A stretch of DNA of 7,180 bases from Smithellaceae bacterium. Its GTDB lineage: Bacteria > Desulfobacterota > Syntrophia > Syntrophales > JAQULV01. The stretch's first letter is position 1. Each line of letters starts with the position of its first letter. Shown here one piece after another: positions 1-5,450 of this stretch. The position numbers were made by a program, and so were the translations under genes. Location of the stretch: positions 1-7,180 of the forward strand of contig JAQULV010000066.1 of NCBI GenBank assembly GCA_028718405.1. The letters run 5' to 3'. Below the pieces are notes generated by a model that was given only the letters and a program-made list of their open reading frames with translations, searched no databases and was not told where the DNA came from.

Positions 1-1376
1 CTTCCGATCTGGGGGACGTCCACCGGGGCCACGTATTTAGCGACGGTGGCAACGGTGTTCCCCACGTTAAGCTTGTCGAAGAGGAAGGAGAACTGCGCCT
101 CCAACTCCTTCTCCAGGGCCTGCAAGGTTTCGGGCGGCATACTCCAGAGGTCCTTCTTGAAGGGACCGAACGCTTTTTTCCTCGTTTTGTAGATGAACTG
201 TTCTTCCGTGTCGGTCTCCTTCTTTTCCGACGCAAAGGCGGTTTTTATATGGCTATAGATCTTTTCCTTCAGGTCGGCCGGGAAATTCTTGCTGTCGTAA
301 ATGATGTTCTGAAATCCCGTGGCCAGATGCACCTCCGCCGTTCCCACGGCGGGAAAGCGATCGAAGGCCTCGTTGGGTAACGTGGAAGCTCCGTGCTGGA
401 CGGCTCCGGCTAGGCCGTAGGCACTGCGGGCCAGTTCGGAGAGGTTCTTCAAGGTGTCGAAATCGAGTTTCACCTTCGCGATAGTGCCATCGGCCAAGGG
501 AACGCCGCCGTGCGTCGTTCCGGTTTGGACGCTGATCTTGCTGATGCCCATGAGCTTCTCGCCGTTCTTCCCCAGCTCCTCCAGGTATCCCTCCATATAG
601 GCCTTCAACTCCTCGACGGTGCTGTTCTTTCCTCCCACCTCGCCGATCTCGCCACCTACGGAGATATGGACGCCGGCCGGCTCCAGATCGCGGATCATCG
701 TCGTCAGTTCCGCGGCCAAGGTATAGTTGTTCTTCTGCTGTTCCTTGACGGTTCCCTGCGAAAGATCGACCAAGGTGGAAGTGTCGATATCGATATTGTA
801 GAATCCTCCTTCGATAGCTTCCCAGATAAGGTCCTTCACGGTTTGGGTCTCTTTGCCCGGGTCCTGGGAGAACTTCTTGGCGCTGATCTGAAAGTGGTCG
901 CCCTGCAGGAAAAGCGGGCCCTTCCAGCCGGCCTTGATGGCGGCGGCCGTGACACAAGCCGTGTATTCGCGGGGGCGCTGGGAGGTGTAATCAATCTCGG
1001 AGCGGGCGATTTCGAAGATGACCGCGCCCGCGTTGCTCTTCTGCGCGGCATGAAAAATGGACTGCGCGACGTTGTAAGTCAGGGCGCGAACGTTGATAGC
1101 CGGGACCGTAAAGCCGCTTACCTCTTTCCTTCCCATCGCCATGTAGAGGTCATGGATGGAGGACGAATGGACGCCCAAAGCCGCACCGGCCCTTCTGATG
1201 AGCCAGATCGCCGCATCCTTCGCCTGCTCGTCTTGACTGAAGACGGCCGAGAAGACAAGATCGTCGATGATCTTTTCTCTCAGCTTCTTTTCGTCCGTTA
1301 CCTGAACCGCGTCGCCGGATACGGCCAGCACGCCTGCGATGCCCTTTTTCAACTGTTCGGTGGTTTCATAGATCAT
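1..1376 (-). CDS. Class II fructose-bisphosphate aldolase family protein, 3' end beyond window
   Basis: The frame is open for 458 codons from the ATG at 1376 to the left edge, with no stop, so the C-terminus is missing. It is assigned to the zinc-dependent class II aldolases, which cleave and form ketose bisphosphates in the cytoplasm. The visible metal and active-site pattern is Gly-Asp-His (D160, H161), Gly-Gly-Glu-Ile-Gly-Glu (E243, E246), Thr-Thr-His-Gly-Gly (H289) and Gln-His-Gly-Ala-Ser (H328), in family order. The barrel appears to begin near residue 88 (Gly-Phe-Thr-Val-Pro-Ala-Ile-Asn-Val), which leaves about 85 extra N-terminal residues, and at least 100 residues follow N357. It is therefore longer than the usual 280-360 residue enzymes. 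The start is supported by AGAGGT about 8 bases upstream; an earlier ATG is out of frame. Bases 1-10 may be adapter sequence, so the last three codons are doubtful. The superfamily is secure; fructose bisphosphate as substrate is inference. Confidence 0.82.
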   Translation of the reverse strand, partial: MIYETTEQLKKGIAGVLAVSGDAVQVTDEKKLREKIIDDLVFSAVFSQDEQAKDAAIWLIRRAGAALGVHSSSIHDLYMAMGRKEVSGFTVPAINVRALTYNVAQSIFHAAQKSNAGAVIFEIARSEIDYTSQRPREYTACVTAAAIKAGWKGPLFLQGDHFQISAKKFSQDPGKETQTVKDLIWEAIEGGFYNIDIDTSTLVDLSQGTVKEQQKNNYTLAAELTTMIRDLEPAGVHISVGGEIGEVGGKNSTVEELKAYMEGYLEELGKNGEKLMGISKISVQTGTTHGGVPLADGTIAKVKLDFDTLKNLSELARSAYGLAGAVQHGASTLPNEAFDRFPAVGTAEVHLATGFQNIIYDSKNFPADLKEKIYSHIKTAFASEKKETDTEEQFIYKTRKKAFGPFKKDLWSMPPETLQALEKELEAQFSFLFDKLNVGNTVATVAKYVAPVDVPQIG

Positions 1377-2901: not shown

Positions 2902-2932
2902 TTGACCCGATTACTACTTCATAGTTCAGAAT
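2902..2932 (+). promoter_or_regulatory. Candidate MerR-type promoter with long spacer
   Basis: TTGACC (2902-2907, five of six matches to the -35 consensus) is separated by 19 bases from CAGAAT (2927-2932, four of six matches to the -10 consensus). Spacers of 19-20 bases are typical of promoters that MerR proteins twist into an active form, and the next gene encodes one. A short dyad ACTA-5 nt-TAGT (2913-2925) lies in the spacer, but it is weaker than usual for MerR operators. Auto-regulation is inference. Confidence 0.3.
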
Positions 2933-2980: not shown

Positions 2981-3562
2981 ATGACATCGACAACCGTGAC
3001 GATTGGACAGCTAGCCAAGCAATTCGGCCTTTCCCGTAGCACCCTGCTTTATTATGACTCTATCAGTCTATTGAAACCAGCGGGGCGGAGCCGGGCGAAC
3101 TATAGGAGGTATACCGCGGAGGATGGCAGGCGTCTACAGATGATCATGACGTACCGACAGGTGGGGCTCTCGATGGCCTCCATCCGGGAGATCATCAAAT
3201 CCCCGCAGAATAGCGTGCGCGACATTCTGGAAAAGCGTCTGCTTGCACTGGGTAATGAGATCGGCGTCCTGCGGGAACAGCAACGGGTGATCATCAGTAT
3301 GCTGGGTGATCGTTCCCTACGCAAACGAATTCCCTTCATGGATAAAGAGGGTTGGATCACCCTGTTGCGGGCCGCCGGCCTCGACGGGGAAGGAATGGCG
3401 AAGTGGCACCGTGAATTTGAAAAGCTTTCCCCGCTTTTGCATCAGGAATTTCTCGAAGGGCTGGGTATTCCCGGCGCAGAGATCGAACAGATCCGGAGTC
3501 TTTCCCGTATGCCCGACCTTGATGCAGAGATGCCGAAGGCAAACGAGGAGAAAAAACGATGA
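2981..3562 (+). CDS. MerR-family transcriptional regulator without cysteines
   Basis: This 193-residue cytoplasmic DNA-binding protein has a MerR winged helix-turn-helix near the N-terminus: TIGQLAKQFGLS at 7-18, LLYYD at 22-26, and the Arg/Tyr-rich wing NYRRYT at 40-45. A predicted dimerisation helix covers about 76-108. The C-terminal part (about 120-175, with WHREFEKLSP near 142-151) looks like a small ligand-binding domain of a kind seen in longer MerR relatives, faintly like TipAS. There is no cysteine in the whole protein, so it cannot sense Hg(II) through the three-thiol site of classical MerR; its inducer is unknown. An in-frame stop at 2951-2953 with no other start codon after it fixes the ATG, although the ribosome site is poor: GAGG is almost adjacent and GGAGG is 19 bases away. 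It overlaps the next gene by four bases (ATGA), so both are likely co-transcribed and translationally coupled, with the regulator probably controlling its partner. Confidence 0.9.
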   Translation: MTSTTVTIGQLAKQFGLSRSTLLYYDSISLLKPAGRSRANYRRYTAEDGRRLQMIMTYRQVGLSMASIREIIKSPQNSVRDILEKRLLALGNEIGVLREQQRVIISMLGDRSLRKRIPFMDKEGWITLLRAAGLDGEGMAKWHREFEKLSPLLHQEFLEGLGIPGAEIEQIRSLSRMPDLDAEMPKANEEKKR

Positions 3563-4311
3563 AGAATAAACTGATGCTCGGATTATGGCGGTACATGCTT
3601 AGCGTGCCGCCGTTCCTCTGGGAGAAGCAGATTGCCAAGGCGAAGGAGAAGTTCGCCGCCCATCTGGCCTTCATGTCTGCCGAACATCGAGAGGTCCATC
3701 ATTTTGTCGTCCGGGAACTGCCGCGTTTAGGAAGACCTTTGGCACCAGACGCTATCGCCTTAGCCCTGCACCTTCCCGTCCCCAGAGTCATCGCCATTCT
3801 GGACGACCTCGAAGAGCACCTGACCTTTCTTTTCAGAAACAACCAAGGAGAGGTCGCATGGGCATATCCCGTGACGGTCGAGAAGACGCCGCACCGGGTA
3901 ACCTTTCATGCGGGCGAGCGACTCTACGCCGCTTGAGCGGTGGACGCGTTTGCGACGCCCTTCGTGCAAGGGCGACTCAGAGGCGAATTCGTATCGGTGA
4001 CGATCCAGACGGAATGCGCCCATTGTTCGCGTCCGATGGAGATAGAGATCGACAGCGATCTCAACTACCATGTCGGGGAAGAAGACTGTACACCGATTAT
4101 CTTCAACCCGGATGTCAATCTTCTCGAACTGGAGGAGGACAGCATCATAGATGCATTCTGACGGGAGAGTGTCTTCTTCTGGTCAGAAGAACATGCAAGA
4201 GAATTCAGAAAGCAGTCTCACCGACTCCGTGGCGCATACATGACGGCGGCACAGGTATGCCGGGTGACAAGGATCGTCCAGAGCGCGATATTCGCATTTA
4301 CAGATGTCTGA
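3559..4311 (+). CDS. merB: MerB (organomercurial lyase) family selenoprotein with two in-frame UGA codons
   Basis: Read through two TGAs, this gives 250 residues, slightly longer than typical MerB (about 212-220). MerB cleaves carbon-mercury bonds with Cys96, Asp99 and Cys159. Here a winged-helix-like N-terminal domain (about 44-90, with RLGRPLAPDAIALAL) is followed by the catalytic domain. The context LYAA-Sec126-AVD129 aligns with MerB LYAWCALD; CAHC (153-156) aligns near MerB Cys117; and DAF-Sec201 followed by FFWSEEHA aligns with MerB SFC-C-HVHFFAS. Both TGAs therefore replace the catalytic cysteines, while the proton-donor Asp is kept. Residues 1-125 contain no cysteine. GAGGAG (3545-3550) lies 8 bases before the ATG, which overlaps the stop of the MerR gene. 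The termination TGA at 4309-4311 is 18 bases from the convergent cutA stop. A decayed pseudogene is the alternative, but an otherwise clean frame argues against it. MerB-family membership is strong; selenocysteine insertion is very likely; organomercury as the substrate is inference. Confidence 0.9.
3934..3936 (+). other. Selenocysteine codon 1 (UGA, residue 126)
   Basis: The in-frame TGA lies between LYAA and AVDAF, where MerB has its nucleophilic Cys96 in LYAWCALD. The residue three positions later is Asp, as in MerB (Asp99). A hairpin follows at SECIS-like distance. Confidence 0.88.
3937..3992 (+). promoter_or_regulatory. Putative bacterial SECIS element 1
   Basis: CGCCCUU (3956-3962) pairs with AAGGGCG (3968-3974), giving a perfect 7-bp stem with apical loop CGUGC. 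The loop begins 26 bases after the UGA, within the roughly 16-37 base range known for bacterial SECIS elements, and has G as its second base followed by U. A lower helix, UUUGC (3949-3953) with GCGAA (3983-3987, one G-U pair), and ACG (3944-3946) with CGU (3990-3992), may extend it. SelB binding is inference. Confidence 0.75.
4159..4161 (+). other. Selenocysteine codon 2 (UGA, residue 201)
   Basis: The in-frame TGA follows DAF and comes a few residues before FFWSEEHA, where MerB has Cys159 in SFCCHVHFFAS. The frame stays open for another 49 codons with recognisable family similarity, and a SECIS-like hairpin follows. Confidence 0.86.
4162..4195 (+). promoter_or_regulatory. Putative bacterial SECIS element 2
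   Basis: UUCUUCU (4174-4180) pairs with AGAAGAA (4185-4191), giving a perfect 7-bp stem with loop GGUC (4181-4184). The loop starts 19 bases after the UGA. The GGUC loop closely resembles the GGU-containing apical loop of the E. coli fdhF SECIS that SelB recognises. The lower stem may continue past a C-C mismatch through U-A, G-U and U-G pairs. Confidence 0.82.
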
Positions 4312-4323
4312 CGGTTTCCACGG

Positions 4324-4346
4324 CGGCCCTTATGTCTGGAGGGCCG
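4324..4346. terminator. Hairpin between convergent merB-like gene and cutA
   Basis: CGGCCCT (4324-4330) and AGGGCCG (4340-4346) form a 7-bp stem with a 9-base loop, overlapping the cutA stop codon. It lies where two convergent transcripts meet, so a shared terminator is possible, but there is no T-run on either strand. It starts 12 bases after the merB-like stop. Confidence 0.35.
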
Positions 4347-4665
4347 GGGGAGCAAGTTCTCCCGCGAGCCAGCTTAGGTAGTCACGGCTGCCGGCGGTAA
4401 CGGGTAAGGCGATAATCTCCGGGACCTCGTAAGGGTGGATGGCTTTGATTGCTTCCTCGCAGGCGGAATAGAGATCCCTGTTCGTTTTGACGAGGCAGAG
4501 CCACTCGGATGACTCTTCGATCCTTCCTTCCCAGCGGTAGACACTCTTGATCGGGCCGACGATCTGCACACAACCGGCCAGTTTCTTTTCCGTCAGTGCT
4601 TGCGCAATTGCCTCGGCCACCTCGCGGCTGGGAGTGGTGGTCATTACCTGGAGATAGCCCGTCAT
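4330..4665 (-). CDS. cutA: CutA divalent-cation tolerance protein
   Basis: This 111-residue protein has the usual CutA length and motifs: AxALTEKKLAGCVQI with the conserved Cys31, SVYRWEG (about 41-47), and HPYEVPEIIALPVT toward the C-terminus. CutA forms a stable trimer with a PII-like ferredoxin fold. It was linked to copper tolerance in E. coli, but its exact biochemical role remains unsettled. The ATG at 4665 was chosen over the longer open frame from 4764 because the family starts there, GGGAGG lies just upstream, and the codon overlaps the stop of the preceding methyltransferase gene (ATGA). It is the last gene of the minus-strand run and converges on the MerB-like gene with only an 18-base gap. 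Confidence 0.95.
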   Translation of the reverse strand: MTGYLQVMTTTPSREVAEAIAQALTEKKLAGCVQIVGPIKSVYRWEGRIEESSEWLCLVKTNRDLYSACEEAIKAIHPYEVPEIIALPVTAGSRDYLSWLAGELAPPALQT

Positions 4666-5450
4666 GATCCCTCCCGCGGCGATGTCGCGCAGGCGTACAT
4701 GAGGATCGCCGCTGCCTGGGGAAGGCTCAGCGACTCCGCGTTCGATCCACCCGGAATGGTCCACAATTCATCTGCCATCTCCAGAAGATTTTTCGGCAGG
4801 CCGTGGCTTTCACTGCCGATGAGAAGGGCCGTTCTTTCCGGGCACCTTTGCGGCAGGTTCCCTCCCCGCGGGGTACTCCCGACGATATGATGCGTCTCTT
4901 TCAGGCGGGGCAGGAGCGCAGAAAAATCGCATTCGCTCCTCAACTGCAGATGAAAGAGACTGCCCATGGAGGCCCGTACCACCTTGGGATTCGTATAGTC
5001 GGCGGAATCGCCACTCAGGCAGACGGTGGAAAAGCCGAACCAATGGGCACTGCGGAGGACGGCCCCCAGATTATTGGGGTTATTGATCCGGTGCAAGAGT
5101 AAGAGGCGCGCCGTCTTTGCCAGCGACGCCGCGTTCATATCTATCTCTTTGGGTGGGGCGACGACGGCCATGATCCCTTCGGGATTATCGTCTTGCGTGA
5201 GGCGCTTCCCTTCGCGCTCCGTGAGGCGATAGATCTCGGTGTCGGCGGGCAGATCAAGTCGAATCCCCTTGTCCGTTTCGTAGTCATCCCTCCAGAAGAG
5301 CAGTGTTTTTATCTTCCAGGGACTTCCCTTGAGCTCGCGGATGATCTTCTCTCCCTCGGCGAGGCAGAGGCCCTCCTTCTTTCGGAACTTCCCCATGTGC
5401 AATTTTTCCCAAAGCTTCAACTGCGTCTGTGTAGGACGGTCGGGTTTCAC
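4662..5450 (-). CDS. SpoU/TrmH-family RNA 2'-O-methyltransferase
   Basis: This 262-residue cytoplasmic enzyme is predicted to transfer a methyl group from S-adenosylmethionine to a ribose 2'-OH in rRNA or tRNA. An N-terminal substrate-binding domain (about 10-98, with CLAEGEKIIREL at 29-40) precedes the SPOUT knot. Motif 1 has RINNPNNLGAVLRSA (121-135) with catalytic-type Arg133. Motif 2 is ALLIGSESHGLP (208-219). Motif 3 is NAESLSLPQAAAILMY (237-252). The start is GTG at 5450, overlapping the stop of the TerC gene (GTGA) and preceded by an AAGGAAAAGG stretch; the 3' end overlaps the cutA start (ATGA). Both overlaps suggest coupled translation. The architecture resembles RlmB/TsnR-type enzymes, but the target nucleotide cannot be read from the sequence. 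Confidence 0.92.
   Translation of the reverse strand: MKPDRPTQTQLKLWEKLHMGKFRKKEGLCLAEGEKIIRELKGSPWKIKTLLFWRDDYETDKGIRLDLPADTEIYRLTEREGKRLTQDDNPEGIMAVVAPPKEIDMNAASLAKTARLLLLHRINNPNNLGAVLRSAHWFGFSTVCLSGDSADYTNPKVVRASMGSLFHLQLRSECDFSALLPRLKETHHIVGSTPRGGNLPQRCPERTALLIGSESHGLPKNLLEMADELWTIPGGSNAESLSLPQAAAILMYACATSPREGS

What the first reader, a model, noticed from the sequence alone, without database searches (positions are those of the whole stretch)
3559..4311. MerB-family selenoprotein with both catalytic cysteines replaced by selenocysteine
Seen directly: one reading frame holds two internal TGAs, at codons 126 and 201, with recognisable MerB sequence before, between and after them. The first sits in LYAA-TGA-AVD against MerB LYAWCALD (Cys96, Asp99). 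The second sits in DAF-TGA, shortly before FFWSEEHA, against MerB SFC and HVHFFAS (Cys159). Known: Cys96 and Cys159 bind Hg and Asp99 protonates carbon in MerB. Inferred: a Sec/Sec active site with higher mercury affinity and nucleophilicity, which could favour demethylation of organomercury or act on another organometal or soft-metal substrate. Random decay would be unlikely to hit exactly the two catalytic Cys codons with TGA and nothing else. Standard gene callers would break this gene into fragments. I cannot say from memory whether a double-Sec MerB has been described.
Basis: partly seen in the sequence, partly recalled or inferred. Interest (0 to 1): 0.95.

Follow-up and report, generated by a model that had tools for sequence, protein, structure and literature searches.

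The report
MerB-like enzyme with two selenocysteines
Dozens of bacteria from many phyla share a gene, usually cut short in databases, that is related to the mercury-detoxifying enzyme MerB and has UGA codons in place of both catalytic cysteines, each followed by a conserved RNA hairpin and so predicted to be read as selenocysteine, which would likely give an enzyme that breaks metal-carbon bonds such as those of methylmercury.

Summary
One frame (3559-4308) holds TGA at codons 126 and 201, which align with MerB Cys96 and Cys159; Asp129 aligns with Asp99 and Cys153 with Cys117. Of 89 distinct homologous loci, 87 have TGA at both codons and 2 have TGC then TGA. Each TGA is followed by a hairpin whose codons are nearly invariant at synonymous sites, unlike the rest of the gene. 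Hairpin 1 shows compensatory changes. In hairpin 2 three loci change the encoded Trp yet keep the apical pair and the GGUC loop, the loop of E. coli fdhF. Carrier genomes have selA (70 of 78) and, in a chosen subset, selB (44 of 50). The model has the MerB fold. The family scores far below the MerB and SaoL equivalog cut-offs; SaoL is the only MerB-like selenoprotein in a 2026 inventory. Decoding as double Sec is near certain by comparison. Organometal (probably organomercury) lyase activity is likely but untested. In those 50 carriers MerA is over its cut-off in 1 and the mercury-methylation protein HgcA in 21, without a matched control. In the window and some relatives a MerR-like regulator and a mer-type promoter precede the gene.

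The parts
3559..4311 (+). Double-Sec MerB-like gene: 250 codons plus the TGA stop
   Evidence: Read-through translation; PF03243 at 57.5 bits, cut-off 27; MerB fold in the model
3934..3936 (+). In-frame TGA, codon 126, in the MerB Cys96 column; predicted Sec
   Evidence: Alignment to 3f2g; TGA in 87 and TGC in 2 of 89 distinct loci
3943..3945 (+). Asp129 codon, MerB Asp99 column (general acid in MerB)
   Evidence: invariant in alignment A4
3956..3974 (+). SECIS-like hairpin 1: 7-bp stem, loop CGUGC
   Evidence: Codon entropy; 93.4% of cells paired, 3 pairs with changes on both sides
4159..4161 (+). In-frame TGA, codon 201, in the MerB Cys159 column; predicted Sec
   Evidence: TGA in 89 of 89 distinct loci
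4174..4191 (+). SECIS-like hairpin 2: stem UUCUUCU/AGAAGAA, loop GGUC
   Evidence: 100% of cells paired in 79 distinct rows; loop GGTC in 89 of 89, apical pair U-A 82, U-G 4, C-G 3
2981..3562 (+). MerR-family regulator gene, overlapping the lyase start by 4 bases (ATGA); its protein has no Cys
   Evidence: ORF; PF13411/PF00376 over cut-off; a homologue by BLAST clustering lies directly upstream in 6 further loci
2902..2932 (+). Predicted mer-type promoter: TTGACC, 19-bp spacer with an imperfect dyad, CAGAAT
   Evidence: Alignment of upstream regions and pattern search

Best explanation
The gene is predicted to encode a MerB-fold lyase with selenocysteine at both metal-binding catalytic positions, and it likely cleaves metal-carbon bonds of organometals, most probably methylmercury. 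Proposed steps: (1) The cell transcribes the gene, in the window likely from a MerR-controlled promoter with a 19-bp spacer (inferred from sequence). (2) SelB with Sec-tRNA would read UGA 126 and UGA 201 with the help of one hairpin each (hairpins shown by comparison; decoding inferred). (3) The two selenolates, in the places of Cys96 and Cys159, would bind the metal of R-Hg+, and Asp129, in the place of Asp99, would give the proton to the leaving carbon, as in MerB (inferred from homology). (4) Since MerA was not found over its cut-off in 49 of 50 carriers, the Hg(II) would be passed to thiol, sulfide or selenide, or exported, rather than reduced by MerA (speculative). Sec at position 201 seems to matter most: it is TGA in all 89 DNA loci, while position 126 has Cys in some members.
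Against: No enzyme assay exists and the substrate is inferred. The family scores below the MerB and SaoL equivalog cut-offs. Most loci have no shared neighbours: the MerR-like gene is in 7 and a MarR-like gene in 6 of 80 neighbourhoods. The window's MerR-like protein has no Cys, so it lacks the known Hg ligands (recalled). MerA is over cut-off in only 1 of 50 carriers, so no mer detoxification route is visible. In the window alone hairpin 2 is not the minimum-energy fold and its z is +0.4; at site 126 the mean z over 80 sequences (-0.3 to -0.5) is not special in the scan. L086 has Cys126 yet keeps hairpin 1. The two outer pairs of hairpin 1 are open in 27 and 9 of 78 sequences. The window's own assembly shows selA only as a fragment, without selB or tRNA-Sec; 8 of 78 carriers lack selA over cut-off. 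One full-length database protein has Gly/Leu at the two columns and two have Ser/Cys. selA is common in these phyla anyway (313 of 345; 280 of 350), so its presence is necessary but weak evidence.
Confidence: 0.62

Rival explanations
1. A double selenoprotein on the MerB fold with another substrate (for example organotin, organolead, organoarsenic or an organoselenium compound), or a soft-metal binding protein without lyase activity.
For: Low score to MerB equivalogs; no MerA over cut-off in 49 of 50 carriers; scattered gene neighbourhoods; MerR-like protein without Cys; an additional near-invariant Cys156 beside Cys153.
Against: The columns of Cys96, Asp99, Cys159 and Cys117 are kept as Sec, Asp, Sec and Cys; 21 of 50 carriers have HgcA; mer-type promoter in the window and a few relatives.
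Confidence: 0.28
2. A decaying pseudogene with two nonsense mutations.
For: Two in-frame TGAs; the ORF list and database entries cut the gene at codon 125. One relative, L085, carries a frameshift elsewhere.
Against: The same two TGA codons in 87 of 89 loci over many phyla, with the protein conserved before, between and after them, and synonymous conservation at the hairpins.
Confidence: 0.01
3. The host reads TGA as Trp or another standard residue (genetic code 4 or 25).
For: 42 of 120 listed database proteins show Trp at both columns, mostly on short JGI contigs; I take this for a gene caller's choice of code 4.
Against: 0 of 89 loci have TGG at either column. In the window TGA ends the merR-like gene and the K+ channel gene, and this gene too. 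selA is over cut-off in 70 of 78 carriers.
Confidence: 0.01
4. UGA 126 is mainly a regulatory stop: a 125-residue N-terminal protein is the usual product, and read-through happens only with ample selenium.
Against: The region after both TGAs is conserved as protein and holds Asp129 and codon 201, so the full-length product is under selection.
Confidence: 0.05

Closest known systems
MerB, organomercurial lyase (NF009710, NF033555; PDB 3f0o, 3f2g, 1s6l) and MerB2 (5c17)
   Different: Both catalytic Cys codons are TGA; 51.8 bits against a cut-off of 193; 16-19% identity to those structures; MerA over cut-off in 1 of 50 carriers
SaoL, MerB-like organometallic lyase of the Sec-assisted organometallic (SAO) system (NF040728)
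   Same: MerB-like selenoprotein; listed with motif CU and 1 Sec in Table 1 of PMC13188914 (section 7, parts 1 and 2 of 3, read); the same accession is the 'alkylmercury lyase MerB-like protein' of PMC9312934 (passage)
   Different: Two predicted Sec in AUA and FUR contexts instead of one in CU; 45.1 bits against a cut-off of 140, best stretch residues 79-167; no recurrent SAO-like neighbourhood seen
Orphan Cys-type MerB in genomes without MerA
   Same: MerB homologue without MerA; PMC8261052 counts 906 such genomes (section 11, part 1 of 2, read)
   Different: That paper reports that none of its MerB-only genomes encodes HgcAB; here 21 of 50 carriers have HgcA over cut-off. hgcAB with merB in one genome is not unheard of: PMC9948709 tells of three MAGs and of Geobacter bemidjiensis, which both methylates Hg and degrades methylmercury (passages)
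Bacterial SECIS of E. coli fdhF
   Same: UGA followed by a hairpin with loop GGUC at almost the same distance: loop GU at positions 23-24 of the fdhF stretch and 24-25 in hairpin 2
   Different: Other stem sequence and no bulge; hairpin 1 has loop CGUGC at positions 30-34

Membership tests
MerB superfamily (PF03243) | Pfam profile over the gathering score | tested here: met
   57.5 bits, cut-off 27, residues 106-238
MerB superfamily (PF03243) | MerB fold | tested here: met
MerB proper (NF009710/NF033555) | Score over the curated cut-off | tested here: not met
   51.8 against 193 and 46.3 against 200
MerB proper (NF009710/NF033555) | Cys96, Asp99, Cys159 | tested here: not met
   Asp is present, both Cys codons are TGA
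MerB proper (NF009710/NF033555) | Cleaves organomercury | not testable with these tools
   Needs an enzyme assay
SaoL (NF040728) | Score over the equivalog cut-off | tested here: not met
   45.1 against 140; 36.2, 47.7, 43.3, 31.0 for four relatives; 43.2, 47.8, 38.3, 45.3 for four more
SaoL (NF040728) | CU motif with one Sec | tested here: not met
   Two TGAs, in AUA and FUR contexts; motif of SaoL from PMC13188914
SaoL (NF040728) | Place in an SAO transport operon | tested here: inconclusive
   No gene family recurs beyond 7 of 80 neighbourhoods; neighbours were clustered by BLAST, and only the window's were named by profiles
Bacterial selenoprotein | In-frame TGA conserved among homologues, with Cys in some | tested here: met
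Bacterial selenoprotein | SECIS hairpin just downstream of TGA | tested here: met
   Comparative evidence for both sites; not the minimum-energy fold for site 201 in the window; no Rfam SECIS match
Bacterial selenoprotein | selA, selB, selC, selD in the genome | tested here: inconclusive
   Own genome: selA fragment at a contig end (297 bits, over cut-off), no selB, no tRNA-Sec, 86% complete. Carriers: selA 70 of 78, selB 44 of 50. selD nowhere and selC in carriers not searched
Bacterial selenoprotein | Sec found in the protein | not testable with these tools
   Needs 75Se labelling or mass spectrometry
MerR-controlled metal operon | MerR-family gene and a promoter with a 19-20 bp spacer holding a dyad | tested here: met
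   Window and a few relatives only; regulation itself untested

The most novel reading that the evidence does not exclude
A widespread, so far overlooked Sec/Sec organomercurial lyase that works without MerA and lets anaerobes, including mercury methylators, take methylmercury apart: a candidate gene for the mer-independent methylmercury demethylation of anoxic sediments, and an enzyme in which evolution replaced both metal-binding catalytic thiols by selenols.
Probability: 0.35. Interest if true: 0.93.

Novelty: new variant of a known kind. Interest (0 to 1): 0.84.

Why it matters
Most known selenoprotein families have a single Sec and only a small subset 2-3 (PMC13188914, section 7); here both catalytic cysteines of an enzyme fold are replaced, and the state is conserved over many phyla. 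Database entries are largely cut at residue 125 or translated with Trp, so mercury-gene and selenoprotein surveys that rely on gene calls would mostly miss or truncate it. If it cleaves methylmercury, surveys of merB undercount demethylators in anoxic settings, and methylation and demethylation may sit in the same cells (21 of 50 carriers have HgcA). It also gives a natural test of what selenium adds to mercury chemistry, since Cys126 and Ser126/Cys201 relatives exist for comparison.

Tried and rejected
Pseudogene, recoded TGA and sequencing error were rejected on the comparative evidence. Membership in the SaoL or MerB equivalogs was tested and not met. Folding energies: in the window z = -1.5 for site 126 and +0.4 for site 201; over 80 sequences the mean is -0.3 to -0.5 at 126, which is not special in the scan, and -0.9 to -1.0 at 201, which with codon 196 (-1.3) is the lowest of the scan. 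Rfam found no SECIS. selA co-occurrence does not discriminate: selA is over cut-off in 313 of 345 and 280 of 350 genomes of the two phylum samples; the 12 and 3 carriers of these samples all have it. The tRNA-Sec matches of the own genome were ordinary tRNAs: RF01852 gave 8 matches under the gathering score on four contigs; ARAGORN on L001, L002, L003 and L007, which span those places by my reckoning, lists Ser, Tyr, Gly, Thr, Trp, Arg, Lys and His tRNAs and no Sec. The best selB candidate of the own genome (L009) looks like EF-Tu by its translation and its ribosomal-protein neighbours (my reading, no profile run); none of the 9 matches is over the selB cut-off. No conserved operon was found: after the MerR-like (7) and MarR-like (6) clusters the next largest are in 5 and 4 of 80 neighbourhoods; the name MarR is my reading of the sequences. 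The 50 genomes were chosen by me from the 78 after the selA result: 49 of the 50 had selA over cut-off, so the selB count is flattered. In one search, 47 of 50 genomes have MerA-related matches under the cut-off (the best 421 bits, cut-off 454), among which divergent MerA cannot be excluded, 25 of 50 match HgcA at 1e-30 and 21 pass the cut-off. HgcA, MerA and canonical MerB were not searched in the window's own genome, nor canonical MerB in the carriers. Rows dropped: L085 (frameshifted) was left out, L086 and L087 (TGC at 126) out; all three are. Other rows not used above: Trp126 and no residue at 201 in 3, Arg126 in 1, and 2 rows with Val126 that I take for misaligned. A claim of novelty rests on searches (listings), on Table 1 of PMC13188914, on the NCBIfam scan, and on term searches without a MerB hit in PMC12013277 and PMC5029168. 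Two papers by Haft and colleagues, which may be the closest, were not held, so a report of this family there is not excluded beyond what the review's table shows.

Full report
Observation. Window 3559-4308 is one frame of 250 codons with TGA at codons 126 and 201; the TGA at codon 251 is taken as the stop. With both TGAs read through it matches Pfam PF03243 (Alkylmercury lyase) at 57.5 bits, cut-off 27; the pieces 3559-3933 and 3940-4158 alone do not match it. phmmer aligns it with MerB of PDB 3f2g (the C160S mutant) so that codon 126 = Cys96, Asp129 = Asp99, Cys153 = Cys117 and codon 201 = Cys159.

Relatives. One scan of genome contigs gave 94 confirmed homologues, of which the best 80 were kept as loci. 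Read through, 77 of 80 show TGA/TGA, L086 and L087 have TGC/TGA, and L085 is frameshifted in my range; a later look found TGA/TGA in L085 too. The scan patterns included FFWSEEHA, so I repeated the search with a profile in 345 genomes of the window's phylum sample: 12 have the gene, the window's own genome included, all with exactly 2 TGA; in a second phylum sample 3 of 350, all with 2 TGA. Together, after removal of six duplicates, 89 distinct loci remain, the window's own copy included: 87 TGA/TGA and 2 TGC/TGA. Eight of them are new from the profile searches (L106-L108, L110, L111, L113, L114, L117). Record titles name Desulfobacterales, Syntrophus, Anaerolineae, Acidobacteria, Nitrospirae, Binatia, Rokuibacteriota, KSB1 and others; these are nearly all metagenome bins, so single labels may be wrong.

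In the protein database the family is mostly broken. Of 121 rows aligned (the 120 hits listed out of 147, plus the query), 61 have nothing at either column, chiefly because they end about residue 125; 42 show Trp at both, mostly on short JGI contigs, which I take for a code-4 translation of TGA (a few of these are named alkylmercury lyase, most hypothetical protein); 8 have Cys126 and end before 201; 2 have Ser126/Cys201; 1 Gly/Leu; the other 6 besides the query are listed in Tried and rejected. NCBI holds a 125-residue 'hypothetical protein HY881_09600' (P0146) whose contig length and identity fit the gene of L018. In the tree the Cys126 rows lie scattered beside Sec126 rows (bootstrap not fully settled, events not counted), while codon 201 is TGA in all 89 loci.

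SECIS. The strongest evidence is at synonymous sites (80 sequences, L085 left out). Codons 134-138 after TGA 126 are nearly fixed (CCC 79 of 79, TTC 80 of 80, GTG 99%, CAA 92%, GGG 99% of the sequences with the same amino acid), and so are codons 206, 207 and 209-211 after TGA 201 (TTC and TTC 100%, TCA 95%, GAA 99%, GAA 93%). Codon entropy relative to the gene's own usage averages 0.17 (6 columns) and 0.36 (7 columns) there and 0.93 in 92 other columns, of which none is under 0.30 (Mann-Whitney p = 6e-7). These codons form a 7-bp hairpin with loop CGUGC (window 3956-3974) and a hairpin UUCUUCU-GGUC-AGAAGAA (4174-4191). Hairpin 1 (78 sequences): 93.4% of cells paired, 3 pairs with changes on both sides in 15 cells, 0 of 500 shuffles as high; its two outer pairs are open in 27 and 9 sequences, and the tool warns that related sequences can beat such shuffles. 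Hairpin 2: 100% paired, no double changes among 79 distinct rows. The loci from the profile search add them: L107, L108 and L114 change Trp208 to Arg (TGG to CGG) together with TCA to TCG, which turns the apical U-A pair into C-G and leaves the loop; L107 opens one other pair. Over 89 loci the loop is GGTC in 89. Its loop GU is at positions 23-24, here 24-25. L087, with Cys126, has lost hairpin 1; L086, with Cys126, still has it. Against: in the window hairpin 2 is not the minimum-energy fold, and single-sequence energies are unremarkable.

Sec machinery. Of the 80 loci, 79 lie in 78 held genomes. selA is over its cut-off in 45 of 49 and 25 of 29, 70 of 78 in all; 3 more have fragments. selB is over cut-off in 44 of 50 genomes that I chose from these after the selA result (49 of the 50 had selA), both loci from records titled 'chromosome' (L080, L083) included. 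selA is common in these phyla anyway (313 of 345; 280 of 350). The window's own assembly (2.04 Mb, 415 contigs, 86% complete) has a selA fragment that runs off the end of contig 240; selB and tRNA-Sec were not found.

Context. In the window the gene overlaps a MerR-family gene by 4 bases. A homologue of that regulator lies directly upstream in L018-L022 and L039; a MarR-like regulator (my reading) lies upstream in six others; no other cluster is in more than 5 of 80 neighbourhoods. Upstream of the regulator the window has TTGACC-N19-CAGAAT (2902-2932), with similar sites in L019, L020, L021, L022 and L039 and, 234 bases before the lyase gene, in L017. The strict pattern hit 6 places on the + strand of these 80 sequences (655,532 bases), all of them upstream of this gene. 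A 19-bp spacer is the mark of mer promoters (start of the abstract of PMC11049809 in the listing). The window's MerR-like protein has no Cys, so how it would sense a metal is open.

Function. MerB needs Cys96, Asp99 and Cys159 (PMC8261052, section 10 read). Keeping all three as Sec/Asp/Sec argues for the same chemistry; the gain would be selenolates that are charged at neutral pH and bind Hg(II) more tightly (established chemistry, recalled). In the 50 chosen carriers MerA is over cut-off in 1 (G069, the genome of L086, a Cys126 member), with weaker relatives in most, and HgcA in 21; G069 has no HgcA, so none of the 21 has MerA over cut-off. PMC8261052 reports that none of its MerB-only genomes had HgcAB (section 11, part 1), while PMC9948709 tells of three MAGs with both hgcAB and merB and of Geobacter bemidjiensis (passages). 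This points to methylmercury but lacks a matched control.

Verdict. Double Sec: about 0.95. Organometal lyase: about 0.7. Methylmercury as the main substrate: about 0.5. These are my estimates.

Noticed in passing
window 1-10: The contig begins with cttccgatct, which I recall as the 3' end of an Illumina adapter: probably an untrimmed adapter at the contig edge.
   Followed up: no
window 4325-4345: GGCCCT/AGGGCC inverted repeat just after the stop, between convergent genes; looks like a terminator stem.
   Followed up: no
window 4330-5450, minus strand: CutA-like protein (102.4 bits, cut-off 120) and an rRNA methyltransferase-like gene (95.3 bits, cut-off 160.15), overlapping; both under the curated cut-offs.
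   Followed up: partly
window 3-1376, minus strand: Class II aldolase-like protein of at least 458 residues, far below the curated cut-offs (best 53.7 bits against 215.6).
   Followed up: no
database rows: 42 of 120 listed proteins show Trp at both Sec columns: gene callers seem to have switched to code 4 on short contigs because of this gene. Such double-Trp entries may flag other selenoproteins.
   Followed up: partly
P0039, P0060, P0018: Full-length members with Ser/Cys (two) and Gly/Leu (one) at the two columns; P0039 lies inside the Sec family in the tree.
   Followed up: partly
column 156 (alignment A4): A further near-invariant Cys forms C153-A-H-C156; MerB of 3f2g has only the first of the pair. 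It could be a redox or metal site.
   Followed up: no
G001:C99:72361-73749 and G022:C120:4391-5722: Two MerA-related frames contain one TGA each: possible further selenoproteins.
   Followed up: no
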